Assembly: GCF_004349105.1 (NCBI RefSeq)
Contig: NZ_SMLB01000003.1
Location: 1-64,000, forward strand
Direction: 5' to 3'
DNA: 64,000 bases
DNA from: Jiangella aurantiaca
GTDB taxonomy: Bacteria; Actinomycetota; Actinomycetes; Jiangellales; Jiangellaceae
Shown here piece by piece: positions 39,211 through 59,305 of the stretch; the first letter of the stretch is position 1, and every line of letters begins with the position of its first letter. A program made the position numbers and the translations under genes. A model generated the notes under the pieces. That model searched no databases. It was not told where the DNA came from and saw only the letters and a program-made list of their open reading frames with translations.

Positions 39211-39239
39211 GTCACGGAAGTCCTTGCTCGGACACCTAC
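39211..39239 (+). promoter_or_regulatory. Accessory-regulon promoter P1
   Basis: GTCACG at 39211-39216, 17 bases, ACCTAC at 39234-39239. This is the only one of six sites with G at the last -35-like position. The membrane-protein start is 44 bases downstream. Confidence 0.65.
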
Positions 39240-39283
39240 CGTGTCAGTGACCGGGCCCTCGGGACGTCAGGCGAGAGGTGTAC

Positions 39284-39772
39284 ATGGAATACAGAGACGA
39301 TTTGGTGAACGCCGAGAACGCCGCCGTCGAGGCCTACACCTCGATGGCGGTTCGGCAGACCAAGCTGTTGCTGCTCGGCATCGGCACGATGATCGCCTCG
39401 ATCGTGGCGATCGTCTTGGCCGCGCTGGCGACCCTCGCCGACCTGGCGGGTGTGGCCGATCTCCACGCGGCCTTCATTCCGGTGGCGGTGATCGGCCTCG
39501 CGTGTGGCGGGGTGGACTTCATCGCCCGGCGGCGTGACAACGACTACGTCGCGGGATGGGCGACGGTGGTCGGCCAGGGCGCGCTCACGGCGGCCGGCGC
39601 CATTGCTGTGCTCGGATGGTTCTCAGCAGACCTCTGGGTGTTCGGAGTTGGCCTCGTCATCGGAATTGTAACCAGTTCGATCTTGGTCAAGTATCCCGAA
39701 TGGGAAACCGAAGCGGAAATGCTCGAACGGTTTGTCCGAGTTCCCGATGACGGTGAGGACGATTTCTTCTGA
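39284..39772 (+). CDS. Small polytopic membrane protein, unknown function
   Basis: 162 residues from an ATG at 39284, chosen because GAGAGGTG lies just before it. Four hydrophobic stretches are visible (about residues 28-52, 60-80, 92-110 and 113-130), with a basic RRRDN loop between the second and third. The N-terminus is charged and helical, and the acidic tail ends VPDDGEDDFF. I recognise no family. It is headed by the same promoter motif as the FtsK-like operon and the secretion cluster, which links it to them. Base composition is slightly lower in G/C than in the core genes. Confidence 0.75.
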   Translation: MEYRDDLVNAENAAVEAYTSMAVRQTKLLLLGIGTMIASIVAIVLAALATLADLAGVADLHAAFIPVAVIGLACGGVDFIARRRDNDYVAGWATVVGQGALTAAGAIAVLGWFSADLWVFGVGLVIGIVTSSILVKYPEWETEAEMLERFVRVPDDGEDDFF

Positions 39773-39918: not shown

Positions 39919-39947
39919 GTCACAATCCGGCCATCCCGCGCACCTAC
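39919..39947 (+). promoter_or_regulatory. Accessory-regulon promoter P2
   Basis: GTCACA at 39919-39924 and ACCTAC at 39942-39947 with a 17-base spacer, 34 bases before the FtsK-like gene. The -10-like half is part of a perfect 10-base palindrome CCTACGTAGG. Confidence 0.8.
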
Positions 39948-39981: not shown

Positions 39982-42783
39982 ATGCGCGTTTCCGCCCTCC
40001 GCCTCGGTCTGCTGCGCGGCCCCGATCCCGACGACGACGGCCCGGCCGCCCTGGCGCATGCCGTCCAGGCGACCGAGGACGCCGCACTCCACCTGCGTGC
40101 TCTCGCCGACTCCGCCGCCGAGCGCGAGCGTCGCCGGCTCGCCGAGGACCAGCAGTCCATCGCCCGCGAGTCCCGCCGCCGGCAGGCCCGGTCGCAAGCC
40201 TCGCTGCTCGCCGCCGCCGACCGCGTCCGCCTCGACATCACCGAGCTGCTCGGCCGCGGCCCCGGCTACGCCCACGAGGGCTGGGAGTCACCGCTCTGGG
40301 CCGAGCCGTACGACCAGCCCGTCGACGTCACCCAGCTGGTGCGCGCCGCGACCCTCGGGCTCGCCTCCCCCAGCAGCATCGTCGAGCTGCCGTTCGTGCT
40401 GCCCGCGCTGGGCGGCAATATCGTCATCACGCACGCGCCGGCCGGCCGGGCGCCGGCCCACAACCTCGCGCAGGCGTTCGTCACCCGCGCGCTCGCGTCG
40501 GCGCTGCCCGGCTCGCTTCGGCTGCACCTGCTCGACCCCGGCGGGCTCGGGCAGAACCTCGGCATCCTCAGCCGGCTGCCTGAGCCGCTGGTCGCGGGCG
40601 GCGTGCGGGCCACCCACGAAGAGGTCTCGGCCGAGCTCCGGGCACTGCGCGAGCACGTCCACCGCCTCAACAGCCAGGTCCTGCTCGGCGACGACGACTC
40701 CCTGGTCACCCGCTGGCACGAGGGCACGGCGCAGGGCATCCCGTGCTCGCTGGTGCTCGCGGCCGGCCTCGGCCCCAACCTCACCGCCGACGACGCCCAG
40801 CAGCTCTGGTCGTTGGCGCGAACGGGCAACCGCTGCGGCGTCGCGGTGGTCGCCGTCATCGACACCGGGCGCGAGCTGCCGCAGGGCGTGGCGCTGGCCG
40901 ACTTGCTCGAGAACGCCGAGCACCTCCACGTCGACCACGAGGGCGGCGCCACCTGGGCATCGTCGCCGCCGGCGCTGCTGCACAACGCCCGCGTGCGCTG
41001 CCCCAATCCGCCCGGCTCGGCCCAGCACCGGTTCCTCACCACCATCCTGGCGCCGGCGGTCCGCCGCGGCGTCAACAAGCCGGTCGTGCTCAGCGACCTG
41101 CTGGCCGCGGATCGGCCTGGCACCGGCACCACGCATGCCCGCGTCGCCGCAACCGTCGGCCAGGCCGCCGACGGCTCCACCATCGAGCTCGCGGTCGGCG
41201 ACGACGAAGGCGTGGCCATCGGCGGAATCGTCGTGGGACCGTCCGGCTCCGGCAAGACGACCCTGCTGCACGCGTTCATCCACGCGCTGGCGCACCGGTA
41301 CCCGCCCGACGAGCTCGAGCTCTACCTGCTGGACATGAAGGCCGGCGTCGAGTTCGCGGAGTACGCACCTCGGCCGGGCCGGCCCGCGCTGCCGCACGTG
41401 CGCGCCGTCGGCATAGAGGCCGACGCCACGTTCGCGCTCGGCGTCCTGCAGCACCTCGCCGCCGTCGACGCCCAGCGCAAGCAGCTGTTCAAGCAGGCGT
41501 CCGCCGACACCGGCCGCGAGATCAAGAACATCGCGCAGTACCGCGAGGTCACCGGCGAGGTGTTGCCGCGCGTGCTGTTCGTCGCCGACGAGTTCCAGCT
41601 CATGCTCGCCGGGCCGACCGAGGACGCCGCCTGGGACACCCTCGACGTGCTGGTCAAGCAGGGCCGCAGCCAGGGCATCCACGTGGTGCTGGCCACCCAG
41701 AGTCTCAACTCCGTCGGCTCCGGGCGGGCAGCGCAGAAGGCGTCGGTCTTCGACCAGCTCGAGCTGCGGGTCGGGCTGCGCTGCAAGCCCGACGAGCTGA
41801 GCCTGCTGCTCGACCGCACGGTCCGCGACCGCCTCGACACCGGCCGCCGCGGCTCCGGAGTGCTCAACCAGGCGCGTGGCGACAAGGACGCCGACCAGCT
41901 GTTCCAGGGCGGACTGCTCGACACCGACGACCGCCGCCGCATCCGCGACTCTGTCGTCGCCCGCTACGGCACCGACCCCCGCATCCGGGTCAGCCGCGGC
42001 ACCGGCGGCGTCGAACTGGCCGACGCCGCGCCGGTGCTGGCGTCGACGCTGCGGCCGACCGTCTACGTCGGCGCGCCGGTCGGCGTCTCGCCGCCGCTGG
42101 TGGGCATCCCGGCCCGATCCGGCGACGGCCGCGGCCTGCTGCTCGCCGGCCGCGACGAAGCGCACGCCGTCGGGGCGGTCAGCGCCACGCTGGCCGGCCT
42201 CGCCCTGCAGCCCTCCTGCGACGACGCCGGCTTCGTCGTCGTCGACCTCCTGCCCGAGCGCATCCCCGGACGACGGCCGCTCGACCAGGTCGTCCAGTGG
42301 CTCGGCGACCGCGCCGTCACGCTCGACGAGGCGCGGCTCGACCAGCTGCCCCAGGTCGCCACGCGGCCGTCCGGGCCGGTGTTCGTGGCCGTGCTCGGGC
42401 TGCAGTACTCCAGTGTCGAGGCGCCGCTCTACACCGACGAGCCGCATCCGCTCGGCTGGCTGTGCGGCACCGGCCCGTCGCTGTCGGTGTTCCCGCTCGT
42501 CTGGCTCGACACCCCCGACCGGCTCCGCAAGCTGGGCCAGCACGGCCAACGGCTGCAGCTACGCGCCGACGCCGGCGGCGACATCATCGACAGCACCTCG
42601 TTCCTCGGCGTGCGGCCGCCGTTCCCCGCGTCCCGCGGGCGGCTCTGGTTCCACGACCTCGCCGGCGACGCCGACCCCGTCCTGCTCGATCCGCTCCAGG
42701 TGGGCGCCTACCTGCCCGAGCCGCGTCAGGTCGTGCCTCCTGGCCCAGCGGTGTCGGAACCCGGGTTCGGAGTGCTCCCATGA
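39982..42783 (+). CDS. FtsK/SpoIIIE-type ATPase with EccC-like multi-domain layout
   Basis: 933 residues from an ATG at 39982. Residues 1-110 are charged helices without membrane segments. The central FtsK domain is canonical: Walker A VVGPSGSGKTTLLHAF near residue 417, LYLLDMKAGVEF, Walker B RVLFVADEFQLML near 530, and HVVLATQSLNSV. A P-loop-like but degenerate unit precedes it (GGNIVITHAPAGRAPAHNL, near 148) and another follows (GRGLLLAGRDEAHAVGAV, near 715), so three FtsK-like modules occur in a row with one intact site. That pattern is seen in EccC ATPases of type VII secretion. It could be a DNA or protein motor. It is coupled to the next gene by ATGA. Confidence 0.85.
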   Translation: MRVSALRLGLLRGPDPDDDGPAALAHAVQATEDAALHLRALADSAAERERRRLAEDQQSIARESRRRQARSQASLLAAADRVRLDITELLGRGPGYAHEGWESPLWAEPYDQPVDVTQLVRAATLGLASPSSIVELPFVLPALGGNIVITHAPAGRAPAHNLAQAFVTRALASALPGSLRLHLLDPGGLGQNLGILSRLPEPLVAGGVRATHEEVSAELRALREHVHRLNSQVLLGDDDSLVTRWHEGTAQGIPCSLVLAAGLGPNLTADDAQQLWSLARTGNRCGVAVVAVIDTGRELPQGVALADLLENAEHLHVDHEGGATWASSPPALLHNARVRCPNPPGSAQHRFLTTILAPAVRRGVNKPVVLSDLLAADRPGTGTTHARVAATVGQAADGSTIELAVGDDEGVAIGGIVVGPSGSGKTTLLHAFIHALAHRYPPDELELYLLDMKAGVEFAEYAPRPGRPALPHVRAVGIEADATFALGVLQHLAAVDAQRKQLFKQASADTGREIKNIAQYREVTGEVLPRVLFVADEFQLMLAGPTEDAAWDTLDVLVKQGRSQGIHVVLATQSLNSVGSGRAAQKASVFDQLELRVGLRCKPDELSLLLDRTVRDRLDTGRRGSGVLNQARGDKDADQLFQGGLLDTDDRRRIRDSVVARYGTDPRIRVSRGTGGVELADAAPVLASTLRPTVYVGAPVGVSPPLVGIPARSGDGRGLLLAGRDEAHAVGAVSATLAGLALQPSCDDAGFVVVDLLPERIPGRRPLDQVVQWLGDRAVTLDEARLDQLPQVATRPSGPVFVAVLGLQYSSVEAPLYTDEPHPLGWLCGTGPSLSVFPLVWLDTPDRLRKLGQHGQRLQLRADAGGDIIDSTSFLGVRPPFPASRGRLWFHDLAGDADPVLLDPLQVGAYLPEPRQVVPPGPAVSEPGFGVLP

Positions 42784-43610
42784 CCGCCGACCTCGAGTTC
42801 GGCACGACCGGCGACCACGGCACGGCCTGGCGCCCCGGCCCGCCCGTCCGGAGCCCGGCCATGCGCGCCTACTGCGCCACCCTGGCCCGCTTCACCTCGT
42901 CAGTGCAGAGCACAGAGCAGCTGCTGCGCAATGACGACGCCGGTACTCGCGAAGACACCGAACAGCGCGAGCTGGCCGCGGCCACCCGTCTGCGCGGCAT
43001 CGACCGTGCTGGCGCCGCCGCCGACGACGGCCTCGCACAGTGCGCCGCCGTCCGCGCTGAGTACGGCCTGCCCGCTGGTTCCGCGCTCCACGCCGTCCGC
43101 CGGCCGTCCGACGATGTCACCGTGGCGCCCCCGTCCGGGCCGCCCGCCGGCGCCGGCCGCCTCGACGACTCGGCGCCGCCACTCGATCGGCTGCGTCGCA
43201 CCGGTGGCGCCGATCTCGGCATCGCCCTGACCGCGCTCGGCCGCCGGCGCGACGAACTCAAGCTGGCCGAGACCGAGTTCGCGCACTGGCTCGAGGCGGA
43301 CGACGAGCGGTCCCGCCGCGTCACGCTCGGCGCCCTCGCCGCTGCCGGCCTGGGCGCCGCCGCCGTCATGGCCGTCGCCGGCACCCGGACGTCCGCCGGC
43401 ACGGCGCTCGCCCTGCTGATCGTCTGCGCGCTGACCGTCGTCGCGGTCGGGCTGGGCGTGGCCGCGGCCCGGCGGCTCCCCCGGGTCTGCCGGGGCGCCG
43501 GACTCGCACGCCGACCGGATGGTCGGGCGCTGGTCAAGTACGGCGCGCGGATCGGCGGCGTGGCGCTGCTCGCGCTCACGGCAGCCAACCTCACCGCCGG
43601 AGCGCTCTGA
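42780..43610 (+). CDS. Helical protein with two C-terminal membrane segments, unknown function
   Basis: 276 residues from an ATG at 42780 overlapping the ATPase stop. Residues 20-170 are mostly polar and helical with acidic and arginine-rich runs. A pair of hydrophobic segments follows at about residues 185-205 and 208-228 (GALAAAGLGAAAVMAVAG, LLIVCALTVVAVGLGVAAA), and a last hydrophobic stretch lies near the C-terminus. It may anchor the soluble ATPase upstream to the membrane. No known domain is recognised. Confidence 0.8.
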   Translation: MTADLEFGTTGDHGTAWRPGPPVRSPAMRAYCATLARFTSSVQSTEQLLRNDDAGTREDTEQRELAAATRLRGIDRAGAAADDGLAQCAAVRAEYGLPAGSALHAVRRPSDDVTVAPPSGPPAGAGRLDDSAPPLDRLRRTGGADLGIALTALGRRRDELKLAETEFAHWLEADDERSRRVTLGALAAAGLGAAAVMAVAGTRTSAGTALALLIVCALTVVAVGLGVAAARRLPRVCRGAGLARRPDGRALVKYGARIGGVALLALTAANLTAGAL

Positions 43611-43623
43611 ATGGCCACCGAGT

Positions 43624-43652
43624 GTCACATTCACCATCCCAGAACGACCTAC
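43624..43652 (+). promoter_or_regulatory. Accessory-regulon promoter P3
   Basis: GTCACA at 43624-43629 and ACCTAC at 43647-43652 with a 17-base spacer, 62 bases before the first helical-protein gene. The -10-like half belongs to an inverted repeat CCTAC-N4-GTAGG. Confidence 0.8.
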
Positions 43653-43714
43653 AGAAGTAGGCGGCCCCACCCGGTCCCGGCAGGTGCGGCCACAGACCGA
43701 GAAGGGCGGCATCC

Positions 43715-44320
43715 ATGCCGAGCATCAAGGAATCCGGCGAGATCCTGATCGACGTCTCCGCCGGCCTGTCCCGCGGCGGCGACGAGACCTCGCGCGGCCT
43801 CACCGAGCTGGAACAGAAGGCCAACGCGGCCATCGAGGCGCTGCGCGACCTCCGGGCGCCGGCCGAGGAGGCCAAGGCGGCCGCCGAGCGGCTGCGCGCC
43901 CGGGCCGAGAACGCGCGGTCCAAGTTCGAGGAGCTCGAACGCGCGGCCTCGGTCACCGAGGACGGCGCCCGTCTCCTCCAATCGGCCTGCGACGATCTCC
44001 AACGGGGTGATGCCGACCTCGCCGCCGTATTCGAGCCGCAGATCCGGCCCATCGCGACACAGGTCAGCCAGTTCACCGACACGCTGCGCCAGAGCGCCGA
44101 CCGCCTCGAACGGGCCGTCGACGGCGTCGCCGAGGGCGCGCAGCAGATCGGCCGGAGCACCGACCAGCTGCTCGATCACGGCGAACAGATCACCCAGGGC
44201 GCCGGCCAGGTCACGGCCAACCTCGCGCAGGTGAAGAAGCGCCTCGCCCAGATCATCCCGGCCGCCGCCCGCGCCGTCCGCGACCGCGGCCGCGAAGCCG
44301 TCCACGTCGCGCGGAGGTAG
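43715..44320 (+). CDS. All-helical coiled-coil protein
   Basis: 201 residues. After a short start (MPSIKESGEILIDVSAGLSRGG) nearly the whole chain is predicted helix with heptad-like spacing (TELEQKANAAIEALRDL, EEAKAAAERLRARAENAR). A Gln/Thr/Ser-rich middle reminiscent of methyl-accepting chemotaxis helices follows (IGRSTDQLLDHGEQITQGAG), then a basic tail. There is no signal peptide or membrane segment. It resembles a long helical hairpin of the kind exported by or bound to type VII ATPases, but no WxG motif is present. The next gene starts 3 bases after its stop. Confidence 0.8.
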   Translation: MPSIKESGEILIDVSAGLSRGGDETSRGLTELEQKANAAIEALRDLRAPAEEAKAAAERLRARAENARSKFEELERAASVTEDGARLLQSACDDLQRGDADLAAVFEPQIRPIATQVSQFTDTLRQSADRLERAVDGVAEGAQQIGRSTDQLLDHGEQITQGAGQVTANLAQVKKRLAQIIPAAARAVRDRGREAVHVARR

Positions 44321-44322
44321 CC

Positions 44323-44709
44323 GTGTCCTCGGCGCCGAACCACGCCCTCTCCGTCATGGAGGAGGAGATCCGCCTGTTGCTCGAATCGCGGCGCGCCTTA
44401 CGAGAGGCCGTCGCCGCGGCGGAACGCGGTCGCGACGCCACCGCGGACGACCTCAGGGCCGTCCGGCAACGGCTCACCGCCAAGACCGACGAGGCACTGC
44501 CCCACGACGAACAGATCCGCCGGCGCATCACCAGCGCGATCGAGTCCGCCTTCACGACGGCCCTTCGCGCGCTGACCGCCCGCTGGAACCAGATCGTCAA
44601 CCTTCTCAAGTCGGCGTGTGAACGACTCGACGAGGCGTTGAAGGAGGCTGAACTTAGGCTGCTGCAGCGCGAGGAGGCCGTGCGCCAGGCTCAGCAGCGG
44701 ACCACCTGA
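44323..44709 (+). CDS. Small helical protein, partner of the coiled-coil protein
   Basis: 128 residues from a GTG at 44323. Two long charged helices (MEEEIRLLLESRRALREAV, ALKEAELRLLQREEAVRQ) flank a short polar region with one tryptophan (LTARWNQIVNLLKSA). The size and hairpin-like pattern recall WXG100 proteins, but the WxG turn is absent. It is co-transcribed with the previous helical gene from P3. Function is unknown. Confidence 0.75.
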   Translation: MSSAPNHALSVMEEEIRLLLESRRALREAVAAAERGRDATADDLRAVRQRLTAKTDEALPHDEQIRRRITSAIESAFTTALRALTARWNQIVNLLKSACERLDEALKEAELRLLQREEAVRQAQQRTT

Positions 44710-46357: not shown

Positions 46358-48214
46358 TCAGTAGATGCCGTCGTTGAGGTGCCGGATGCGGACCGCGCGC
46401 GTGCGCGACACCACCTGGGAGCCGGCGCCCTCATTGCCGCGCCAGCGGATCAGCAGCTTGGTGCCGTCGTTCTGGATCGGCTCGACCTGCTCGATGATCA
46501 CCCAGCCGGTGTCGTCGTCGAGGCGGGCGAGGCTTCCGGCCTGTAGCTGCGACACCATGACCATCTCGGACCAGCCTGCGGTCTCGACCTGAGTGGACGC
46601 GGCCGCGGAGGAGCCGCCGGAGGTACGCGCGCGGCTCCAGTCGGCGAGGCCGGACGTGCTGGCGCCGTAGCCCTCGGCGAGGTCGGCGTTGAGGTTGACG
46701 CGCCAGGACGCCTCCGGGCTGTCGGCCAGCGCCCGTGACCGCTGCACGTGCAGGACGGGGTGCGTGACGAGGCTCGGCCGGAGGGCATCGAGCAGGTAGA
46801 TGTCCTGTTCGTCGTCGACGCGGCGAGCCTCGCGCGGGTCGGGGGTCCAGTAGCACTGGATGAGCACCGGCTTCGCGTCGCCGGACTGTACTGTCGCCCG
46901 GCCGGGGACGGGTTCGGCGGGCTCCGTCGGGCGATCGCTCCCCCACAGCGCCGAGGCGACGCGGCTGTCGAGCCGGCCGAGCGCCACGACGGCGCCGAGG
47001 TCGTCGCGGTTCTCCTCGCGCAGCAGCGGATCGTCGGCCCGCTGCATGCTCAGGACGACGTAGACGTTCACCTGACGGCCATGGCGGAGCAGGTCGGTGA
47101 CGCGGTCGTGCGCGAGCGACGCGGCCGCCGGACCCTGACCGGCCCGGTTGGCGGCGTCGGCGACGGCGGTGGCGAACTCGCGGAAGTGGTGGATGACGAC
47201 GACGAGCGGCTCGAGCTCCGCGCGGCTGGACCCGGACTCGATGAGCGCGACGCGGCCCTCCATCTCGCGCCACGCCTGGTTCAGAACGACGATCTGGTCG
47301 TCCAGCGTCGACGCGACGATCTGCACGTTCGGCCAGTCGCGCACACCCAGGAGGTCGACGCGACGGTGGTCGATGATCCACACCGGCCAGCCGCGCGCTG
47401 CCGCCTCGACGACGATGCCGGTGAGCAGCACCCGTTTGCCGGCGCCGGACCGGCCGAGCACCAGCAAGTGCCCCTGCGGCGCGGCCAGGTTCCAGCCGAC
47501 CCGGGTCCCCGTGGCGTCGACGCCGAGCGGCACCAGCCACGACGACAGGTCGGGCTGCGTCGGCACCGGCCGGGCGACCTTCTCCGGCAGCGCCCGCCGA
47601 ACGGCGTCGCGCGCCCGCTCCGCGCGTGCCGCCGGCTCCGGGGTGAGCGACCCGCCGGTGCGGGTGGGGTCGCGCAGCGTGAGCCGATGGCCGCGGATGT
47701 TGTGCCGGCCGACCGTGTACTGCTGCTCCAGCTCGTGGTGGACGGCCTCGGCGATTCCGGCGGCCCAGTCGGGGGCGGAGTCGTCGACCTCGGTCGGGTA
47801 CTGGATGTTCAGCACGTGCGGGACGCCGACCCATCCGCCCTGCCACTGCCGCGCGTCGACGTCGAGGTACGACGCGTCGGGCACGCCGATGTGCCGCGCC
47901 AGCGCCTCGGCGAGGTCGGCGACCACCCCCTCGCGCGTCCGCCGCCGCACCGACACCGCGTACAGCGCACCGGCGCAGGCCAGCGTCGGCAGGAGGAACA
48001 GCACACCGATGTCCGGCTCGTCGAGAGCGGCCAGGATCGCCCACATCGACACGGCGAGGAACACGACGCCGACGGCGCTGGCGGCCAGCTGCCACGGCGT
48101 GAAGCCCTTGATGGTGGGCTCGGCCGGGCGCGCCGACGCGAACCTGTCGTCCTTGTCTTCCGGATCCGGTCCGGACGAGGCGGCGAAGGTGTCCACCGGG
48201 TCATGTGGCGCCAC
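46358..48214 (-). CDS. TcpA/VirD4-like coupling ATPase (FtsK fold)
   Basis: 618 residues from the GTG at 48214, which has GAGAGG seven bases before it. A GTG 30 bases further up would sit directly against the promoter. Two membrane segments lie near residues 35-57 and 61-80, as in TcpA of pCW3. The ATPase has Walker A LGRSGAGKR near residue 254, with arginine where serine or threonine is normal, then VWIIDHRRVDLLG and LVVVIHHFREFAT. NVYVVLSMQRADDPLL closes the core. The C-terminus has an SH3-like hydrophobic/charged pattern. Its expected role is to bring substrate to the secretion channel. It is headed by P4. Confidence 0.82.
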   Translation of the reverse strand: MAPHDPVDTFAASSGPDPEDKDDRFASARPAEPTIKGFTPWQLAASAVGVVFLAVSMWAILAALDEPDIGVLFLLPTLACAGALYAVSVRRRTREGVVADLAEALARHIGVPDASYLDVDARQWQGGWVGVPHVLNIQYPTEVDDSAPDWAAGIAEAVHHELEQQYTVGRHNIRGHRLTLRDPTRTGGSLTPEPAARAERARDAVRRALPEKVARPVPTQPDLSSWLVPLGVDATGTRVGWNLAAPQGHLLVLGRSGAGKRVLLTGIVVEAAARGWPVWIIDHRRVDLLGVRDWPNVQIVASTLDDQIVVLNQAWREMEGRVALIESGSSRAELEPLVVVIHHFREFATAVADAANRAGQGPAAASLAHDRVTDLLRHGRQVNVYVVLSMQRADDPLLREENRDDLGAVVALGRLDSRVASALWGSDRPTEPAEPVPGRATVQSGDAKPVLIQCYWTPDPREARRVDDEQDIYLLDALRPSLVTHPVLHVQRSRALADSPEASWRVNLNADLAEGYGASTSGLADWSRARTSGGSSAAASTQVETAGWSEMVMVSQLQAGSLARLDDDTGWVIIEQVEPIQNDGTKLLIRWRGNEGAGSQVVSRTRAVRIRHLNDGIY

Positions 48215-48248
48215 GGGACTGCCTCTCGGTTGGTCGGTCCTCACTGTC

Positions 48249-48277
48249 GAAGGTGCGCTCGGGCGGGCTGTTGTGAC
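48249..48277 (-). promoter_or_regulatory. Accessory-regulon promoter P4
   Basis: On the minus strand GTCACA (48277-48272), 17 bases, ACCTTC (48254-48249). It has one change in the -10-like half compared with the other sites. Its -10-like half ends 34 bases before the preferred TcpA-like GTG at 48214. Confidence 0.65.
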
Positions 48278-48304
48278 AAGGGACGGCTGGAGACGTCGAC
48301 GCGG

Positions 48305-49123
48305 TCAGCGGTGCGCCAGCGGGGTCTGAAGCTCGACGATGCGCCACGGGCCGGCGGCGGACTCGCGCTCGAGGAAGGCGAACCACTGGTGCTCGACCAG
48401 CGGGCCGTTCCACGCATCGCGGCCGATCGGCGTCATGCGCACGTAGAACCGGCGCTCGGCCCGGGTCTCGGTGTCAGGGGTGTCGATGTCGGTGGTGTGC
48501 GGCTCGATGGCGTTGATCGAGGCGAATGCCTGGTGCTCGGCCCACAGGTCCCAGTCGCGCTGGACGTCCTGCCGCAGGCCGTCGAGGTCGTAGGCGGAGG
48601 AGTCGTACGGCGCGACCAGCCAGGTCTGGACCCGGTTCATCGCGTCCTCGGACGAGGCGTCGTGCGTGGTGTCGAAGCTGTACGCGGCGGTCAGGGCGGC
48701 GACGGCCACGGCGGTCGGATCGGCGCCGTCGACGGTCGCCGGATCGGGCACGACGACGGGTTCGGGCACCTGCATCCCGGGCGGCAGGGTCGGGGTCTGG
48801 CGCGGACCCGGGGTGGAACGGGCGGTCGGGGTGTCGGACGGTTCCAACCTCTCCGCGGTCGTGTCCTCGGTGTCGGTCTCGTCGGCCGCCTCGGTGCCGG
48901 GTGCGGGCTGGTCGCCGGATGGGTCGGTGGCGCTGGTGTCGCCCGGCGTGGTGGAGCCGTCCTCCGGCGCTGGTCGTGGCGCCCGGCTGTCTTCAGCGGT
49001 GACCACAGGGGAGTTGCCACCCACCCCGTCATTCCCACCGCCACCGAAGACCAGCAGCAACCCGACGAGGGCGAGCACCACGGCGGCGCCGATGAGCAGC
49101 AGCGAGGAGCGCGAGCGGATCAT
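48305..49123 (-). CDS. Membrane-anchored VirB8/NTF2-like protein
   Basis: 272 residues. One membrane anchor (about 7-27) is followed by a long Pro/Thr/Asp/Glu-rich spacer (30-130). The C-terminal domain of about 135 residues (AVAVAALTAAYSF..., WFAFLERESAAGPWRIVEL) has the pattern of an NTF2-like fold used by VirB8/TcpC-type assembly factors. It overlaps the TcpG-like gene by 4 bases, so it probably works in the cell-wall part of the apparatus. The family assignment is by fold pattern only. Confidence 0.65.
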   Translation of the reverse strand: MIRSRSSLLLIGAAVVLALVGLLLVFGGGGNDGVGGNSPVVTAEDSRAPRPAPEDGSTTPGDTSATDPSGDQPAPGTEAADETDTEDTTAERLEPSDTPTARSTPGPRQTPTLPPGMQVPEPVVVPDPATVDGADPTAVAVAALTAAYSFDTTHDASSEDAMNRVQTWLVAPYDSSAYDLDGLRQDVQRDWDLWAEHQAFASINAIEPHTTDIDTPDTETRAERRFYVRMTPIGRDAWNGPLVEHQWFAFLERESAAGPWRIVELQTPLAHR

Positions 49124-50490
49124 GGGTTCATCCGCCCGTAGCCGACCACCGGCCCGCTCGGGCCCATGGTGAAAGTACCGGACGAGCGACTGATGCGGTT
49201 GCTCTCGTTGCCGCCGACGGTGACCAGCGTGCGGCTGGCCTCGTCGACCTCGACGACGATGCTCACGTGGCCGGAGTAGATCATGACGTCACCTGGCCGG
49301 GGCGGCTTCGTCGGGCCGGCGCTGCCGACGGGGATGAACTCCTGGCCGTGGCCGCCGGACTCGAACCACGCCTGCATGCCTATGACGGCCGGGATCTGCC
49401 ATGGATGTCGCCAGAAATACATCTGTGTGCCGGGTTCGGCCTGGAACGGGATGCCGGCCGCTTGGAAGACCCAGCTGACGAAGTCGGCGCACCATTGCTC
49501 GCAGCCGGTGGCGATGTAGGTGTCGCTGATGGTGGGGCCGCAGTTGCTGCCGAACGGCTGCTCGACGATGCCCTTCGCGTACTCCTGCTCCGCGATCTGC
49601 ACGACGCCGTCGAGGCCACCGCCGCTGATGCCGCCGCAGCCGGCCCACCCGCCGCCCTCGCCCTGCTCGCCGTCCTCGCCCTCGCCGATGCCCATGCCGT
49701 GCGGCGGCGGGTAGGTGGCGTACTGTCCGTAGTCGCCGGTGCCGCCCTGGGTGAAGTTGGACGAGACGAGCGCGTGGACGTTCTCGACGTAGCGGCGGGT
49801 CTCGTTGTTGTTCCAGTTGCCGGCGGGCCCGGCGTTGTAGCTGGCCGCCGAGTACACGAACGTGCCTGGCTCCCATCTGGCGACGTCGCCGAGCGGTGTC
49901 TCGGCGGTGACGCTGCCGTAGACGCCGTCGGCATGGGTGAAGAGGTTGGCCGCGGTGAAGATGGCGTCCCAGGGGTCCATGTAGTCGGGTGGGCCGCCGT
50001 CGGCGCTGTACTTGTACGCGTCCCAGGTGCCGGCGCCGACGTTGAACTGCATGGGGCCGTGGCAGCAGCCGGAGCTGGGCCAGTCGGTGTCGAGGTCCTT
50101 CCAGGCGTTGCCGTTCTCGGTCAGGTAGATGGCTGCCAGGTAGGCGGGTTCGACGCTGAACTCGTTGCCGGCGGCGGTGAAGATCTCGGCCCACGGTTCC
50201 GGGACGTTGGCCAACGTGGCGCCGCCCGTGCAGACCTCGTCGCCGGGCGTCATGGTGCACTCGGCGAGCGGGGCACGGTCGGTGATCTCGCACCAGAGCG
50301 CCATGACGGTGGCGACCGGGATGAACGCCAGCGACGCCGCGCCGACCACGCCGAACACGGTGAGCAGCGCGATGCCGAGCAGCCACTTCTTGACCCGGCC
50401 GGAGCCCTTGCCGCCCGGCGTGCGCGCCGGCTTCGCCCTCGTACGCCTCGCGACGACGGCCCCGCCGGCGGCGACCGAACCCTCTGCCAT
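49120..50490 (-). CDS. TcpG/VirB1-like cell-wall hydrolase (lytic transglycosylase + CHAP)
   Basis: 456 residues from an ATG at 50490. A basic N-terminus leads to one membrane segment (about 38-62). A transglycosylase-like domain has LAAIYLTENGNAWKD (likely catalytic glutamate near 115), GPMQFNVGAGTWDAY and ASYNAGPAGNW. After a glycine-rich linker, a CHAP amidase/peptidase domain shows CEQWCADFVSWVF near 330 and GHVSIVVEVD. Double-domain hydrolases of this kind open the peptidoglycan for Gram-positive type IV secretion systems. It is first in the P5 unit. Confidence 0.92.
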   Translation of the reverse strand: MAEGSVAAGGAVVARRTRAKPARTPGGKGSGRVKKWLLGIALLTVFGVVGAASLAFIPVATVMALWCEITDRAPLAECTMTPGDEVCTGGATLANVPEPWAEIFTAAGNEFSVEPAYLAAIYLTENGNAWKDLDTDWPSSGCCHGPMQFNVGAGTWDAYKYSADGGPPDYMDPWDAIFTAANLFTHADGVYGSVTAETPLGDVARWEPGTFVYSAASYNAGPAGNWNNNETRRYVENVHALVSSNFTQGGTGDYGQYATYPPPHGMGIGEGEDGEQGEGGGWAGCGGISGGGLDGVVQIAEQEYAKGIVEQPFGSNCGPTISDTYIATGCEQWCADFVSWVFQAAGIPFQAEPGTQMYFWRHPWQIPAVIGMQAWFESGGHGQEFIPVGSAGPTKPPRPGDVMIYSGHVSIVVEVDEASRTLVTVGGNESNRISRSSGTFTMGPSGPVVGYGRMNP

Positions 50491-50542
50491 ACCCGCCCTC
50501 CATCCGGGCGCCCGCCACCGCGGCTGTGTAGCGGACGTCTGT

Positions 50543-50571
50543 GTAGGTCGGTGAGGGGGCGGTTCTGTGAC
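50543..50571 (-). promoter_or_regulatory. Accessory-regulon promoter P5
   Basis: On the minus strand GTCACA (50571-50566), 17 bases, ACCTAC (50548-50543), 52 bases before the TcpG-like start and in the 92-base gap after the J-domain gene. Confidence 0.8.
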
Positions 50572-50582
50572 AGACGGGACGA

Positions 50583-51818
50583 TCAGGTCGTCCATTCCGG
50601 TGTCGCTCTGCGCCGGTCGATCAGCGACGAGGTCGCGTACTGCGCGCCCACGTGCAGGGCCCACGCCAGCGCGACCAGCCCGAACAGCCAGCGCTCGGTC
50701 GTCGTCGCAAGATGCCAGTACGCGAGCGGCCAAGCCAGCAGGCCGATGGCCGCCGGAACGTAGATGAGCTCCAAGCCGCTGCGGTGTCCGATGGAGATGT
50801 AGGCGATGTAGCCATAGAGGGCCACCACGATGGCGACGGCGATCGGATACCGCAACGCGACGTCCAGTGCGTCCGGCCCGGCCGCCGCCGGGCGGATGAG
50901 CCCGTGCGCCACGAGCAGAACCACCGCCAGGAACACGAACGTGGCGCCGATGACGACGTAACCGACCCGGACGACGCGGCCTCCCACGTCCGTCCGTGCC
51001 CATAGCGTCAGGTCGCTGACCTGCGACGTGCCCGAGGTGTCGCGGAACATCCGTGCCTCGTCCCATCGGCCGAGGACGATCGACAGACCAAGGAGCAGGC
51101 CGTTGTAGATCAGCCAGACGACGACACCGGCGACGTAGGTCCATCGCTCCGCCGCCCTGGCGAGGTCCCAGTAGGCGATCGGCCAGGCCAGCAGAAAAAC
51201 CGAGAAGAGCGCGTGGACGAAGATCAAGCCGACGGCCGACTCCGATCGCGCGGCCCCGAGCAGGAGGACGTAGCCGAGCGTGACGATCAGGCGCAGCACC
51301 GGCTGCCCGTCGTACCAGCTGACGAGGTCGGAACCGGCGTCCGCGGGGCGCATGAACCCGGGGTCGTACAGCAGGATCAGAGTCCCCAGGACGAAGATCA
51401 CACCCGTAGCGGCGGCCAGCGCCACCAGGGTCCGGCTCCCCCGGCGTGTGCCGGCCCCGGACTCGTCAGTATCGGAAGCGAACGGCCGGTCCGGCCTGCC
51501 GTCCCCGGCGGCCCAGCTCGTCTCCTCGCCCCACTCGGCGTCCGCCTCGTCCGGGCCGGGCTGGGCAGCGGGGCCGGGCGCGTCGGACCACTCATCGACT
51601 CGTGGACCACTCCTGGCGCCCAGGCGCGCGTCGTAGTCGGCTCGTCTGGCCGGGTCGCTCAGCGTCTCGTACGCGGCGGTGATGAGCCGGAACATGCCGC
51701 TCGTGCCGCCGACGTCGGGATGCGCGGCGCGCACGGCCCGGCGATAGGCCTCCTTGATCTCGGCCGTGGTCGCCGTGGGCGCGACGTCCAGCAGCTCGTA
51801 GTAGTCGAGGTCCGCCAC
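50583..51818 (-). CDS. DnaJ-domain polytopic membrane protein
   Basis: 411 residues from a GTG at 51818, two bases after the upstream stop. The N-terminal J-domain (residues 1-65) is intact: DLDYYELLDVAPTATTAEIKEAYRRAVRAAHPDV, with the HPD triad that stimulates Hsp70. An acidic linker follows, and then about eight membrane segments from residue 140 on, in two similar halves (each with a PIAYWDLA or PLAYWHLA motif). It could recruit DnaK to the secretion apparatus for unfolding or assembly. J-domain proteins are not standard type IV parts, and I know of no named family. Confidence 0.8.
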   Translation of the reverse strand: MADLDYYELLDVAPTATTAEIKEAYRRAVRAAHPDVGGTSGMFRLITAAYETLSDPARRADYDARLGARSGPRVDEWSDAPGPAAQPGPDEADAEWGEETSWAAGDGRPDRPFASDTDESGAGTRRGSRTLVALAAATGVIFVLGTLILLYDPGFMRPADAGSDLVSWYDGQPVLRLIVTLGYVLLLGAARSESAVGLIFVHALFSVFLLAWPIAYWDLARAAERWTYVAGVVVWLIYNGLLLGLSIVLGRWDEARMFRDTSGTSQVSDLTLWARTDVGGRVVRVGYVVIGATFVFLAVVLLVAHGLIRPAAAGPDALDVALRYPIAVAIVVALYGYIAYISIGHRSGLELIYVPAAIGLLAWPLAYWHLATTTERWLFGLVALAWALHVGAQYATSSLIDRRRATPEWTT

Positions 51819-51820
51819 GG

Positions 51821-52648
51821 TCAGCCGATCTGCGTGCCTCGGGAGCCAGGAAGTCCGCGTCGCGGCGAGCGGTCGTCCAGCACCGACTGGGTGGCATCGA
51901 GCCCGCCGACCTCGACCCGGCCGAGGGACGCGGTCACGGCGTGGACGAACCACGACTCGGCGGCCAGCGCCGCTGCTGCCTCCGCCGAGTCCGGTGACCG
52001 CGTGATCGCACGACTCGCGACGATCGCGATGACCACCCCAGCCGTGGCCCGCACCAGGCATGCCTCCTGCCGAAGCCCCGAACCGCGGTCGAAGCTCTGG
52101 ATCAGCCGTTCGTCCTCGAAGTCCGGCTCCGGCACCGTCGCCAGGACCTGGCGGCGCACCGGCGCCGGGAGCACGTCGAGTACCTCGGGTTCGTCCTGCT
52201 CGTGCACTGCTGAGCCGCTCGGAGGAGTTGGGGCGCCGGCCGAGACGACGCCTCTGCGTTCCTTCACCTCACCGACGAACGGGCGGCGGTGGATGGTGAA
52301 CCGCCAGCCCTCGCGCCCGGCGGAGTGGACCGGACGCACGGCGTCGATGATGGTCAGGGCGTCGTCGTCGACCGTCCAGGCATGGCCGACCTCGACGTCG
52401 ACGCCCCCGCGGACCTCTCGCTCCGGCGGGAGGGCGCCCGAGGCGAACGCGAGCTCACCGGCGTGGCCGGCGCGATCGAGAGCGAGATGAACATCGACCG
52501 GGAGGTAGTCCCAGCTCGACCAGTCGCCGGGCACCGTCCTGACGAAGCTGATGTCGAGCGTCGAACCGGACTGCCCAGCATCGAGCCTTGCACGCGACGT
52601 GGTCCGTCGCTGCGGTGCGGGCGCTCCGCTGCGGTCCAGTTCCGACAT
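51821..52648 (-). CDS. Hypothetical protein in the secretion cluster
   Basis: 275 residues from an ATG at 52648. There is no signal or membrane segment until a weak hydrophobic helix near 215-235 (ATAGVVIAIVASRAI). The first half has YLPVDVHLALDRAGHAGELAF and WRFTIHRRPFVGE, an alpha/beta pattern; the second half is acidic. It precedes the J-domain gene with two bases between them and follows a YbjN-like gene, suggesting a small accessory operon. No domain is recognised. Confidence 0.75.
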   Translation of the reverse strand: MSELDRSGAPAPQRRTTSRARLDAGQSGSTLDISFVRTVPGDWSSWDYLPVDVHLALDRAGHAGELAFASGALPPEREVRGGVDVEVGHAWTVDDDALTIIDAVRPVHSAGREGWRFTIHRRPFVGEVKERRGVVSAGAPTPPSGSAVHEQDEPEVLDVLPAPVRRQVLATVPEPDFEDERLIQSFDRGSGLRQEACLVRATAGVVIAIVASRAITRSPDSAEAAAALAAESWFVHAVTASLGRVEVGGLDATQSVLDDRSPRRGLPGSRGTQIG

Positions 52649-52711
52649 CACTATGCCCCGTCCTGCGGCTGACGTGCTCGAACACACCCTAGGTGGATCA
52701 AGGTCGGGCTG

Positions 52712-53293
52712 TCACTCGCTCTCGTCGAGGTCGGCGGCGCCGGCGATCCGCCGCGCATCCGGAAAGGCCAGCTCTGCGGCGTCGAACACGGCGAGCCCCG
52801 ACACGATGCCGGTGTTGATGGCCAGATCGACACGGTCGACGGTCGGGTCGGCGCCGAGATCGGCCGTGACCTCGCAGTGCAGGCCGATCCACCCCTCGTT
52901 GTCGGGCAGCACGAACACCTTCGGCCACACGTGCTGCGCGTTCCACTCGTTCGCGAAGACGACAGCCGCCTGGAATCCGCCAGGCGGCATCATCCGCTCC
53001 CACAGGCCGTGAACCTGCAGCACTTCGGCGCGACCTTCGTCGTCCGCCAGCACACCGAAGTCGAAGATGCCGTTCTCCCAAACGCCGATGACGTCGCCGC
53101 CGTCCGCCTCGTAATCGGCAGAAATGGCGTCGAGTGCGGCCCGGACCAGCTGGTGCAGGTGGCTGGTGGCCCCCGTCGCGGCCGCCGGCCTGGCCGGAAG
53201 GTGGCCGCTGGCTGTGACCGGCACCGGGAGCCGGCCCGTTGCCGGCCTCGGCCCCCCGGACAGGTCGGCTCGCAGGCGGTCGAGCTGACTCAC
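52712..53293 (-). CDS. YbjN-like / secretion-chaperone-fold protein
   Basis: 193 residues from a GTG at 53293. The first 55 residues are Pro/Ala-rich. The remainder (HQLVRAALDAISADYEADGGD, IGLHCEVTADLGADPTVDRVD) has the helix-strand pattern of YbjN/DUF1790-like proteins, a fold shared with type III secretion chaperones. In this setting a substrate-binding or chaperone role is plausible but inferred. It lies downstream of the TcpH-like gene on the same strand. Confidence 0.65.
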   Translation of the reverse strand: MSQLDRLRADLSGGPRPATGRLPVPVTASGHLPARPAAATGATSHLHQLVRAALDAISADYEADGGDVIGVWENGIFDFGVLADDEGRAEVLQVHGLWERMMPPGGFQAAVVFANEWNAQHVWPKVFVLPDNEGWIGLHCEVTADLGADPTVDRVDLAINTGIVSGLAVFDAAELAFPDARRIAGAADLDESE

Positions 53294-53343
53294 GGCATGA
53301 TCCTCTCGTCGTCCGTCGTCGGCGGGATTCGATCGACCGTTTA

Positions 53344-55566
53344 TCACGGCTTGCCCTTCTTGCGGCGGCGGGCCTGTCGCTGCTCCCTGAGCTGATCCTC
53401 CCTGATCTGCTGCCACTTCTTCTGCTGCATGTCCCGACGATCGCGCTCGTGTGCGGCTCGCAGCTCGTCGGGCGTGAGGCGGCTGCGCTCGGCCCGGTTC
53501 TGCGCCCGGTGGTCGCGGTTCAGGTGGCGTCGCTCGCGCCGCATCTGCTGGATCAGCCGACGGCGTTCCTCCGGTGCCGAATTGACCCGCTCAGCGCCGT
53601 AGCGTCCTTGCGTCATGCGCGCGAGCCGCTCGGCGCGGCGCGTCTGGTTGTCGAACTTGCGCAGCCGGGCCTGGTCCGCGCGCACCGCCCGGGCCATCTC
53701 GGACCGGCGTCGAAGGGTGTTGACGCGATTGACCGCGGCGTGGTTGCCCTGGCGGAGGTGGTGCTGGACCCGGTGCCGGCGGGCGAACTCGACCGTGCGG
53801 CTCGCGCCGTTGGCCATCGCGTTCCGGGCGGCGTAGCCGGCGCTACGGGCGGCAGTGGACTTGGCGGCCATGGCGCCGCCCTTCGCAACGACGGAGCCGC
53901 CACCGGTGGCCCAGGCGAGGCCGACGTGGCCGGCGAGGCCGCTGGTGCGGCGGATCACGCCTTGGAGGCGACCTTGGCCGGACTGGCCGCCGAGGTTGCG
54001 GGCGGCGTCGCTCATGGCGTTGAAGTTGCCGGCGACCCGGTTGAGGGCGCCACGGGCACCGCCGCCGCCGGAGGGGACGAGGGGCGAGCCGCCGAAACCG
54101 CCGCCGCCTCCGCCGCCACCGGAGTTGAACCTCGACGCCATCGCGGCGGCGACGCGGTCCTTGGTCTCGTGGACGGCGCCGCGGCCGCGCCAGAAGAGGA
54201 CGATGCCGGCGATCAGCAGCAGGTCGATGAGCAGGAACTTGCCGATCTCGGCCCACCGGACGGAGCGGTCGTCGGGGTTGCCGGTGGGTGCTCGTCCGGA
54301 CGACATGATGTCGGTGACGACGTGGAGGAACACGCCGAGGAAGACGATGCAGAACATGAGCATCAGGACGGTGGCGAACAGCTGGCCGATGTTGCGCCAC
54401 AGCACCGATCTGGCGCCGCCGGGGAGGATCGCCAGCAGCAGCGTGACCAGCAGCTTCACGCACTGCACGAGGGCGGACAGGCCGGCGATGAACACGACGC
54501 CGGCGACGATGAGGATGAGCACGGCGAGGATGGTGACGGCCGGCTGGATCGCGAACTGGGCCATCCAGCTGTCCGGCCGCGCCATCTTGGCGAACGTGTC
54601 GACCTCGTCGTTGAGGCAGCTGCCGACCACCTTCCAGACCTCGGGGTCGTAGTCGACGGGCTCGTCGCCGGTGCCGCCCCACCAGGTGCCGGGGTCGGTC
54701 AGCTCGGATCCGGTGTCGACGCCGTCGGCCGCGGAGCCGCGGCCGGCGAGGTCGCGGCTCTCCAGGTCCTCGCGGAGATCGTCCTTCGACGTGCTGTTGC
54801 CGGCGTGGGACAGCGCGACGACGTAGGCCTCTTCGCAGTCGCCGTCGAGGATGTAGCCGAAGTTGACCAGCATCGCCGGGTGGTAGAGGAACGTGTCGAG
54901 AATGCTCTCGCCGGGACTGACCCGCTGGTTGTCGGGATCGCTGAGGTCGTCGAGATAGTCGTCGTCGTTGACGATCTGGCCGACGAGGTACTGGGAGGTG
55001 TCGCGGGCGTCGTAGAGCAGGCCCTCCTGGCTGTCGTTGTCGCCGACGAGCCAGGTGATCGGGTTGATCGGCGCGAGGTTGTTGTCGGGATGCTGGCCGT
55101 TGTAGCTGATCGCGGCCACCGCGTAGTTGGCGACGATCAGCGACAACAGGAGTTGGACGAGGCCCTTCCCCCACATGCCCCTGGCCATCCAGAGCATGCA
55201 CACGAACGCGGTGATCGTCAGCATCGCCACGTAGACGTTCAGGTTCGACAGCATGCCGGCGATGGAGTCCTGGAAGTCGCCGGCGATGCCGGTGAACCAG
55301 TCGAGCCACGTCATGCCGAGCACGAAGTCAGTGACCCACGCCAAGGCGATGACCTGGAACTGGTAGATCGCCCACGTGATCGTCATGAGCACCTTGAAGA
55401 TCAGGTGGAACGGATCGGTGATGCCACCGGCCAGCGACAGTTGCACGTGAAACGCCGACAGCTCGCAGTCGCCGGTCGGGTTGATGAACTGGTCGCCGAG
55501 GCCGTTGCCGCCGGGGACCTGGCAGGCCTCGGCGACGATGTTGACCGCGCCGGCGACGACGCTCAT
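53344..55566 (-). CDS. TcpH/VirB6-like polytopic channel protein
   Basis: 740 residues from an ATG at 55566 overlapping the TcpF-like stop. Eight or so membrane segments fill about residues 45-120, 130-150 and 335-475, with a large extracellular loop between (about 155-335, rich in Asp, Gly and Trp, with several cysteines). A glycine run near 485 begins a long cytoplasmic, arginine/glutamine-rich tail of about 230 residues. The pattern matches TcpH/VirB6 inner-membrane pore proteins in size, order and position next to the VirB4-type ATPase. Confidence 0.85.
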   Translation of the reverse strand: MSVVAGAVNIVAEACQVPGGNGLGDQFINPTGDCELSAFHVQLSLAGGITDPFHLIFKVLMTITWAIYQFQVIALAWVTDFVLGMTWLDWFTGIAGDFQDSIAGMLSNLNVYVAMLTITAFVCMLWMARGMWGKGLVQLLLSLIVANYAVAAISYNGQHPDNNLAPINPITWLVGDNDSQEGLLYDARDTSQYLVGQIVNDDDYLDDLSDPDNQRVSPGESILDTFLYHPAMLVNFGYILDGDCEEAYVVALSHAGNSTSKDDLREDLESRDLAGRGSAADGVDTGSELTDPGTWWGGTGDEPVDYDPEVWKVVGSCLNDEVDTFAKMARPDSWMAQFAIQPAVTILAVLILIVAGVVFIAGLSALVQCVKLLVTLLLAILPGGARSVLWRNIGQLFATVLMLMFCIVFLGVFLHVVTDIMSSGRAPTGNPDDRSVRWAEIGKFLLIDLLLIAGIVLFWRGRGAVHETKDRVAAAMASRFNSGGGGGGGGFGGSPLVPSGGGGARGALNRVAGNFNAMSDAARNLGGQSGQGRLQGVIRRTSGLAGHVGLAWATGGGSVVAKGGAMAAKSTAARSAGYAARNAMANGASRTVEFARRHRVQHHLRQGNHAAVNRVNTLRRRSEMARAVRADQARLRKFDNQTRRAERLARMTQGRYGAERVNSAPEERRRLIQQMRRERRHLNRDHRAQNRAERSRLTPDELRAAHERDRRDMQQKKWQQIREDQLREQRQARRRKKGKP

Positions 55567-58884: not shown

Positions 58885-58935
58885 CGATCGTCACCTCCGC
58901 CCTCGGTCTCGTGGCTGGCCTGCTCGTGGGGACGA

Positions 58936-59259
58936 CTAGGTCAGGTCGACCTGCTGTGACGCCGGCGCCGACCCGGGAAGGTCCTCGCCGACGGTGTCGC
59001 GCAGGGCGGTGACGTTGTAGACGATCCAGATGAAGACGCCGGCCGCGAGCGCGGAGACGATGATCGTGCCGATGGCGAACTTGGACTGGACGGCCTTGTA
59101 GACGACGAACAGGATCGCCACCGTGATGGCCACCACCCGCAGCACGGTCTGCAGGCTCGATGCGGTGTCGGTGGTCCAGTCGAGCAGGCCGGCCTGGATG
59201 GTGATGGACGAGGTGGCGAGGTCGGGTGCCGTCGCCGTGAGTCCGGTGATGAGGCTCAT
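58936..59259 (-). CDS. TcpD/VirB2-VirB3-like small membrane protein
   Basis: 107 residues. Two membrane segments lie at about 37-57 (VLRVVAITVAILFVVYKAV) and 64-84 (IGTIIVSALAAGVFIWIVY), separated by a short basic turn, with a polar N-terminus and a short acidic tail. The size and position between TcpC- and TcpE-like genes match TcpD, a small inner-membrane part; a pilin-like role is also possible. It is inside the P6 unit. Confidence 0.75.
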   Translation of the reverse strand: MSLITGLTATAPDLATSSITIQAGLLDWTTDTASSLQTVLRVVAITVAILFVVYKAVQSKFAIGTIIVSALAAGVFIWIVYNVTALRDTVGEDLPGSAPASQQVDLT

Positions 59260-59305
59260 GGCTCCTTCTCCTTGTGAGCGGGCTGTGGTGCTGGGGTCGG
59301 GTGAT

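What the first reader, a model, noticed from the sequence alone, without database searches (positions are those of the whole stretch)
39982..44709. Four-gene FtsK/EccC-like operon set with helical partners: candidate unknown secretion or tethering system
The ATPase has one intact and two degenerate FtsK-like modules, the pattern of EccC in type VII secretion. It is coupled to a membrane protein, and a second unit under the same promoter encodes two helical proteins (201 and 128 residues) that look like helical hairpins but lack WxG. It may be a new branch of ATPase-driven export co-regulated with a type IV channel.
Basis: partly seen in the sequence, partly recalled or inferred. Interest (0 to 1): 0.78.

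Follow-up and report, generated by a model that had tools for sequence, protein, structure and literature searches.

The report
Soluble EccC-like ATPase with hairpin partners
A soil actinobacterium (Jiangella type) carries a relative of the type VII secretion motor with helical partner proteins, and the same rare promoter-like element precedes these genes and a neighbouring conjugation-type channel, which suggests that the two are made together.

Summary
At 39982-44709 lie a 933-aa ATPase with one intact and two degenerate FtsK-like modules, a translationally coupled membrane protein, and two helical proteins without WxG. AlphaFold2 gives a long N-terminal helix and three FtsK-like domains; the best Foldseek match is the type VII ATPase EccC. 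The 201-aa protein is modelled as a hairpin with arms of about 95 residues.

The ATPase is not an unknown branch. It fits a soluble EssC-like family described in 2024 with the same anatomy, next to WXG100 proteins in CoCoNuT defence loci.

What looks new is regulation. GTCACR-N16-ACCTWC occurs six times in the window, upstream of a missed fifth gene (164-aa membrane protein), the ATPase, the hairpin unit and three units of a Tcp-type IV-like cluster. The genome has nine exact matches; the other three lie inside long open frames. Five of the six sites are present in 12 of 12 genus genomes, the sixth in 11 of 12.

Best reading: a membrane-tethered motor that handles helical partner proteins and is deployed with the channel. 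Export is unproven: the helical proteins lack WxG and any tyrosine for a YxxxD/E signal.

The parts
39278..39772 (+). 164-aa membrane protein, fifth member of the set, no family above cut-off
   Evidence: same element upstream; in the same 14 of 60 genomes as the ATPase orthologue
39982..42783 (+). 933-aa EccC/EssC-like ATPase: N-terminal helix, degenerate D1, active D2 (P-loop from residue 419), degenerate D3
42780..43610 (+). 276-aa protein: N-terminal helical part, linker of variable length, hydrophobic C-terminal segments; inferred membrane anchor of the ATPase
   Evidence: three hydrophobic segments in orthologues L052-L054 by simple hydropathy; no Pfam match
43715..44320 (+). 201-aa protein modelled as a long helical hairpin (helices 4-98 and 100-200), no W, no Y
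44323..44709 (+). 128-aa helical-type protein with one invariant W (in ARWNQIV); not modelled
39211..39239 (+). promoter-like element before the 164-aa gene
39919..39947 (+). promoter-like element before the ATPase unit
43624..43652 (+). promoter-like element before the 201/128 unit
48249..48277 (-). promoter-like element before the FtsK-like gene of the type IV-like cluster
50543..50571 (-). promoter-like element before the transglycosylase/CHAP gene
60948..60976 (-). promoter-like element before the head of the type IV-like operon (gene 60586-60912)
   Evidence: exact match in 11 of 12 genus genomes
46358..60912 (-). co-regulated Tcp-type IV-like cluster: FtsK-like (46358-48214), CHAP/SLT-like (49120-50490), VirB4/TcpF-like (55563-58235), TcpC (59306-60589), 108-aa protein (60586-60912) and others
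   Evidence: start codons read
61167..61967 (+). 266-aa divergent gene; weak lead for a sigma-like/HTH regulator of the element
   Evidence: hhalign to SigM only 27 columns, probability 8%; no Pfam, NCBIfam or PDB match

Best explanation
A stand-alone module built on a soluble EccC/EssC-like ATPase. Shown by sequence or model: three FtsK-like domains of which only the middle one keeps the ATPase motifs, a long N-terminal helix where EccC has membrane segments, and a translationally coupled protein with hydrophobic C-terminal segments. Inferred: that protein tethers the ATPase to the membrane; the 201-aa long hairpin and the 128-aa helical protein form a rod-like complex that the degenerate domains bind and the middle domain acts on, as EccC/EssC does with WXG100 proteins. 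Shown: the units and the 164-aa membrane gene carry the same rare promoter-like element as the adjacent Tcp-type IV-like cluster. Inferred: the module is made when that channel is made, and prepares or moves proteins for it or beside it. Export of the helical proteins is possible but not shown.
For: Three-domain model and EccC as best Foldseek match; one P-loop in 54 of 55 relatives; the described EssC-like family with the same anatomy sits with WXG100 proteins, and WXG100-type proteins lie beside relatives found here, 12 of 13 hand-picked ones matching PF06013; a membrane protein follows the ATPase in many actinobacterial relatives; five-gene order kept in 15 of 15 Jiangellaceae loci read, some being the same genome from two collections; shared element six times in the window, mean 0.015 in 200 shuffles, kept in the genus and present before the VirB4-containing cluster in 2 of 3 loci of other families.
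Against: No direct evidence of export, complex formation or expression. The helical proteins lack WxG and tyrosine and show no profile relation to WXG100-type or to the actinobacterial W-less neighbours. Outside the family, strong ATPase relatives (G038, G042, G058) and VirB4 relatives (G024, G028, G030, G051) do not coincide in the 38 other genomes, so the pairing may be local. Domain arrangement is not established (TM-score 0.39, rmsd 12.6). About 1300-aa relatives, mostly planctomycete, carry one or two predicted hydrophobic segments, so 'soluble' does not hold for the whole family.
Confidence: 0.5

Rival explanations
1. A self-contained minimal export system: the ATPase-membrane pair exports the two helical proteins by itself, and the type IV-like channel is merely expressed at the same time.
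For: Relatives of the ATPase occur with a membrane protein and small helical proteins in other Actinobacteria, and strong ATPase and VirB4 relatives do not coincide in the 38 non-family genomes searched. PMC11090510 predicts defensive protein secretion and cites stand-alone versions.
Against: The element ties the module to the channel genes in 12 of 12 genus genomes. The helical proteins have no WxG and no tyrosine, and the 201-aa protein is highly conserved (61-96% in the seven loci), unlike a fast-changing effector.
Confidence: 0.22
2. A stress or defence signalling module: like the TerY-P/CoCoNuT-associated relatives, the ATPase senses or remodels something at the membrane and exports nothing.
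For: A relative on a Caballeronia plasmid sits with vWA, CARF, PP2C and kinase genes; a Rhodococcus plasmid relative lies near TerD genes.
Against: The genes of the module and of the type IV-like cluster gave no vWA, kinase, phosphatase, TerD or nuclease match in Pfam (not every gene of the window was scanned), and the module is a fixed chromosomal feature of the genus, not a sporadic island.
Confidence: 0.13
3. A DNA translocase: the ATPase pumps DNA for the conjugation-type cluster or in segregation.
For: The middle domain fits FtsK motors best in VIA-align (Z 29.9), and the neighbouring cluster is conjugation-type.
Against: The genome has a separate FtsK and the cluster its own FtsK-like gene. 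PF03432 relaxase is absent from the genome and TrwC lies on other contigs. Two dead domains flanking or accompanying an active one is the EccC/EssC layout.
Confidence: 0.1

Closest known systems
EssC-like ATPase module of extended Type III-A CoCoNuT loci (PMC11090510, section 10 read in full)
   Same: N-terminal coiled coil or long helix, three ATPase domains with only D2 active, no transmembrane part in the ATPase, small helical partner genes
   Different: No vWA, CARF, nuclease or McrBC genes found among the scanned neighbours; helical partners not related to WXG100 by profile; coupled membrane protein; shared element with a type IV-like cluster
Type VII secretion ATPases EccC/EssC (T7SSa, T7SSb; variants T7SSc-j in PMC11217815: abstract, section 7 and passages seen)
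   Same: Tandem FtsK-like domains; best Foldseek hits
   Different: No membrane segment in the ATPase, active domain is the middle one only, no WXG100 partner in the set. PMC11217815 does not contain the word Jiangella
Tcp (pCW3-type) conjugation system, for the neighbouring cluster
   Same: TcpC over its Pfam cut-off, TcpF/VirB4-like ATPase (below that model's cut-off; AAA_10 E 2.2e-43), FtsK-like protein
   Different: No relaxase of the two families searched near it; fixed chromosomal place in the genus
LXG toxins with Lap partners (PMC9600955, search listing and start of abstract only)
   Same: About 200-residue helical part with small helical partners; analogy from recall
   Different: No toxin domain follows the hairpin; homology not tested directly

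Membership tests
EssC-like ATPase family of CoCoNuT loci (PMC11090510) | Three ATPase domains with only the middle one active | tested here: met
EssC-like ATPase family of CoCoNuT loci (PMC11090510) | N-terminal coiled coil and no transmembrane segment in the ATPase | tested here: met
   Helix 20-91; no hydrophobic segment in 7 of 7 Jiangellaceae orthologues by simple hydropathy; coiled-coil pairing itself not tested
EssC-like ATPase family of CoCoNuT loci (PMC11090510) | WXG100 partner proteins | tested here: not met
   No WxG; Pfam WXG100 E 0.0057 for the 201-aa protein, below cut-off, none for the 128-aa protein; hhalign 0.6-1.8%. Hence the claim is 'ATPase of this family', not 'complete module of this kind'
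Type VII secretion system | EccC/EssC with its own membrane segments | tested here: not met
Type VII secretion system | WXG100 substrate with WxG | tested here: not met
   the genome's WXG100 match (E 3.9e-5, 26.5 bits, just under cut-off) is on another contig beside an EccC-like gene
Type VII secretion system | C-terminal YxxxD/E signal (recalled motif) | tested here: not met
   No tyrosine in either helical protein
Type VII secretion system | Further machine parts (EccB/D/E or EsaA/EssA/EssB) | tested here: inconclusive
   No such Pfam match among the scanned genes of the module and neighbour cluster; rest of the genome not searched for them
Type III-A CoCoNuT system | McrBC-type genes, TerY vWA, kinase and phosphatase nearby | tested here: not met
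   None among the genes scanned; not every gene of the window was scanned
Tcp-type conjugation system (neighbouring cluster) | TcpC, VirB4/TcpF-like ATPase, FtsK-like protein | tested here: met
Tcp-type conjugation system (neighbouring cluster) | Own relaxase | tested here: inconclusive
   PF03432 has no match in the genome; PF08751 only on contigs C50, C61 and C68, the window being C36; other relaxase families not searched; genome in 102 contigs

The most novel reading that the evidence does not exclude
A hybrid export machine: a membrane-tethered EccC-like motor and a long helical-hairpin carrier deliver cargo into a relaxase-free Tcp-type channel, the whole being one regulon of a private promoter read by a divergent, so far unclassified sigma-like factor encoded beside the channel.
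Probability: 0.22. Interest if true: 0.8.

Novelty: new variant of a known kind. Interest (0 to 1): 0.52.

Why it matters
EssC-like ATPases without membrane segments occur in several phyla, but how they could move proteins without a channel of their own is open. Here one is coupled to a membrane protein and shares a rare promoter-like element with a conjugation-type channel throughout a soil genus. That gives a testable channel partner and a testable regulon, and would join two machine classes usually treated apart.

Tried and rejected
Homology of the helical proteins to WXG100: hhalign of the 201-aa and 128-aa families against 13 WXG100-type and 13 W-less neighbour proteins gave probabilities of 0.6 to 1.8%, and the two neighbour families against each other 0.2%; not shown. 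The helical alignments are shallow (Neff 1.6 and 2.4), so distant homology is not excluded.

The 201-aa protein as a chemoreceptor: the best fold hits are chemoreceptor hairpins, but no hit reached E 0.001 and long hairpins match one another freely; no chemoreceptor family was among the 25 Pfam rows shown.

The generic sigma-70 scan found no promoter in 38700-46400. A palindrome idea (CCTACNNAGTAGG) matched only one unrelated place. SigM (35843-36508), the fifth gene upstream of the ATPase, was considered as reader of the element; I read no SigM promoter consensus to compare (one search was a listing), so it stays open.

Tree of the active domain: EccC domains form one side of a branch with support 78/98, the present family lies on the other side with FtsK; several branches are very long and the family's single origin appears in 54% of bootstrap trees, so I do not lean on it.

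Literature: the 2012 Anantharaman paper is not held. Searches found no paper on this locus among the rows listed; none of the 8 papers listed contains the word Jiangella. This is no proof that nothing is in print.

Dropped before counts: alignment A6 holds the window and 54 of the 80 loci; loci with no ATPase ORF found (L066, L098, L120), loci mis-picked by my ORF chooser (L095, L112, L127, and the plasmid locus L037), near-copies and some others were left out, and ORFs above 1000 aa were cut to their last 1000. The neighbour sets A4 and A5 (13 proteins each) were picked by hand, one of them (L111) trimmed at its N-terminus.
Full report
What the window is. Upstream of the locus lie ordinary chromosomal genes: a CCA-adding-type polymerase and DUF6049, an MviN-type frame, SigM, its anti-sigma, thioredoxin reductase and thioredoxin (MviN, anti-sigma and thioredoxin names are my own reading). 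The nearest named relatives of the ATPase are in Jiangella species, 82 to 94% identical. The window is on contig C36 of a 6.6 Mb genome in 102 contigs.

The observation. The four genes are where stated. The ATPase has one Pfam FtsK_SpoIIIE match, residues 410-575. AlphaFold2 with a 55-row alignment gives three FtsK-like domains after a 72-residue helix, mean pLDDT 84.9. Foldseek's best match is the three-ATPase EccC of Thermomonospora curvata (950 columns, E 3.9e-32, TM-score 0.39). VIA-align places 712 residues of it over model 98-909 with Z 26.7 and rmsd 12.6, while the middle part fits FtsK motors at Z 29.9. The domain arrangement is therefore not established. Across 55 members, exactly one P-loop is found in 54. 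The active domain is the middle one, whereas PMC11090510 states that EssC keeps the motifs in D1 and D2.

Known family. PMC11090510 section 10, read in full, describes EssC-like ATPases with an N-terminal coiled coil, no transmembrane part and only D2 active, beside two WXG100 proteins of which one lacks WxG, and reports from a 2012 study that such an operon can stand alone. A relative on a Caballeronia plasmid (31.5% identity over half the query) sits with vWA, WXG100, CARF, PP2C and kinase genes. A scan of named genomes gave 386 confirmed stretches, of which the best 80 were returned, from Actinobacteria, Planctomycetes, Chloroflexi, Proteobacteria, Verrucomicrobia, Armatimonadetes and a cyanobacterium. 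Relatives of about 1300 aa, mostly planctomycete, carry one or two predicted hydrophobic segments, unlike the Jiangella protein. So the ATPase is a new member of a described family.

Partners elsewhere. Beside many non-actinobacterial relatives lie small W-x-D/G proteins; 12 of 13 hand-picked ones match PF06013. In Frankia-type and other Actinobacteria the ATPase is often followed by a membrane protein, and 86-88-aa proteins without W, with an invariant Gly and an invariant C-terminal Tyr, lie nearby; 1 of 13 of these matches WXG100, at E 0.0017. The window's 201- and 128-aa proteins stand in the same position but are not demonstrably related.

The Jiangellaceae set. The order 164-aa membrane protein, ATPase, 276-aa membrane protein, 201, 128 was seen in 15 of 15 loci read (L044-L051, L052-L058; several are the same genome from two collections). 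ATPase orthologues are in 12 of 12 genomes of the genus, in 2 of 2 of one sister genus, and in none of the 8 other family genomes searched. Identities to the window in the seven loci are: ATPase 70-94%, 164-aa 70-98%, 201-aa 61-96%, 128-aa 33-73%. The linker of the 276-aa protein varies from a few to over 200 residues. The 201-aa protein is modelled with pLDDT 91.3 and pTM 0.58 as helices 4-98 and 100-200; its best solved matches are long chemoreceptor hairpins, TM-score up to 0.80 at E 2.3e-3. Around the tip (residues 89-120) 18 of 32 positions are invariant against 70 of 169 elsewhere, a modest excess.

The shared element. Alignment of upstream regions showed GTCAC followed by CACCTAC-like sequence before all three units. 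A scan of the window with spacing 14-18 allowed found six hits, all with spacing 16, each 34-62 nt before a start codon by my count: three in this set and three in the type IV-like cluster. Two hundred dinucleotide shuffles of the window gave a mean of 0.015 at the fixed spacing, maximum 1. The genome has nine exact matches and none for the reversed control; the three outside the window lie within long open frames. With a slightly wider pattern over 25 genomes, the 164-aa, ATPase, 201-aa, FtsK-like and transglycosylase sites are present in 12 of 12 genus genomes and the operon-head site in 11 of 12 (G001 lacks an exact match); these are my counts from the listing. Each genus genome has two to seven further matches, four of them (G001, G002, G008, G010) a seventh place in the cluster; the reversed control gives zero to four per genus genome. 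I examined the further matches only in the window's genome. Both sister-genus genomes have the three left sites and a divergent pair before the FtsK-like and transglycosylase genes. In loci of other families with a VirB4 relative, two of three have the element before the cluster (G030 two sites, spacing 15 and 16; G028 one, spacing 17; G051 none). In 80 other loci of the ATPase family (1.29 Mb, two of them second copies in G018 and G007) the wider pattern hit three times, once in the G018 second-copy locus. The simplest reading is that the element belongs to the type IV-like cluster and that the ATPase set was brought under it in this family.

The neighbouring cluster. It has TcpC, a VirB4/TcpF-like ATPase, an FtsK-like protein, a CHAP enzyme with a sub-threshold transglycosylase match, and a DnaJ-domain protein. 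PF03432 is absent from the genome and TrwC relaxases lie on other contigs. A divergent 266-aa protein at its head recurs beside the cluster in two other families and has relatives in 18 of 60 genomes, including all 14 family genomes with the cluster, but with paralogues elsewhere in those genomes and one relative in G015, which has no VirB4 match. Its C-terminus aligns over 27 columns with SigM, hhalign probability 8%. Calling it sigma-like is a lead only.

Co-occurrence. In the 22 family genomes, ATPase orthologue, 164-aa protein and VirB4-like protein are together in 14 and absent together from 8. The 14 are two genera, so this may be one event. In the other 38 genomes, strong ATPase relatives (G038, G042, G058) and VirB4 relatives (G024, G028, G030, G051) do not coincide. 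This limits any claim of a general functional bond.

Judgement. The class of the ATPase is secure, co-regulation is well supported at the sequence level but untested in the cell, and function is inferred. The most economical mechanism is a tethered EccC-like motor acting on helical partner proteins while the type IV-like channel is deployed.

Noticed in passing
L042 (G018:C18) and L043 (G007:C1): Two Jiangellaceae genomes carry a second, distant member of the ATPase family with W-less 86-aa proteins nearby; the copy in L043 is broken (a stop inside its frame).
   Followed up: partly
Alignment A4 (13 proteins): A family of 86-88-aa helical proteins without W beside actinobacterial relatives of the ATPase, with invariant Gly45 and Tyr82, WXG100-like in size but barely matched by Pfam.
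   Followed up: partly
window 61167-61967 +: 266-aa protein without any family match, divergent from the type IV-like operon; its C-terminus looks like a sigma region 4 helix-turn-helix (weak evidence).
   Followed up: partly
L038 5577-9545 (Rhodococcus plasmid NZ_CP126457.1): A relative of the ATPase annotated FtsK/SpoIIIE whose N-terminus reads to me like a TerD domain, followed by a small W-x-D protein, with TerD family genes nearby.
   Followed up: no
G000:C9 about 22000-26600: A separate EccC-like 1563-aa frame with a borderline WXG100 match (26.5 bits, cut-off 27.3) close by: probably the genome's ordinary type VII-like locus.
   Followed up: no
window 46358-48214 -: The FtsK-like protein of the type IV-like cluster has GRSGAGKR at the P-loop, with Arg where Ser/Thr is usual.
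   Followed up: no
window 62893-63594 +: SAF-domain protein (PF08666) beside the cluster, possibly the start of a pilus-type operon that runs off the window.
   Followed up: no
G001, G002, G008, G010: A seventh copy of the promoter-like element lies within the type IV-like cluster of these four genomes, between the transglycosylase and operon-head sites.
   Followed up: no
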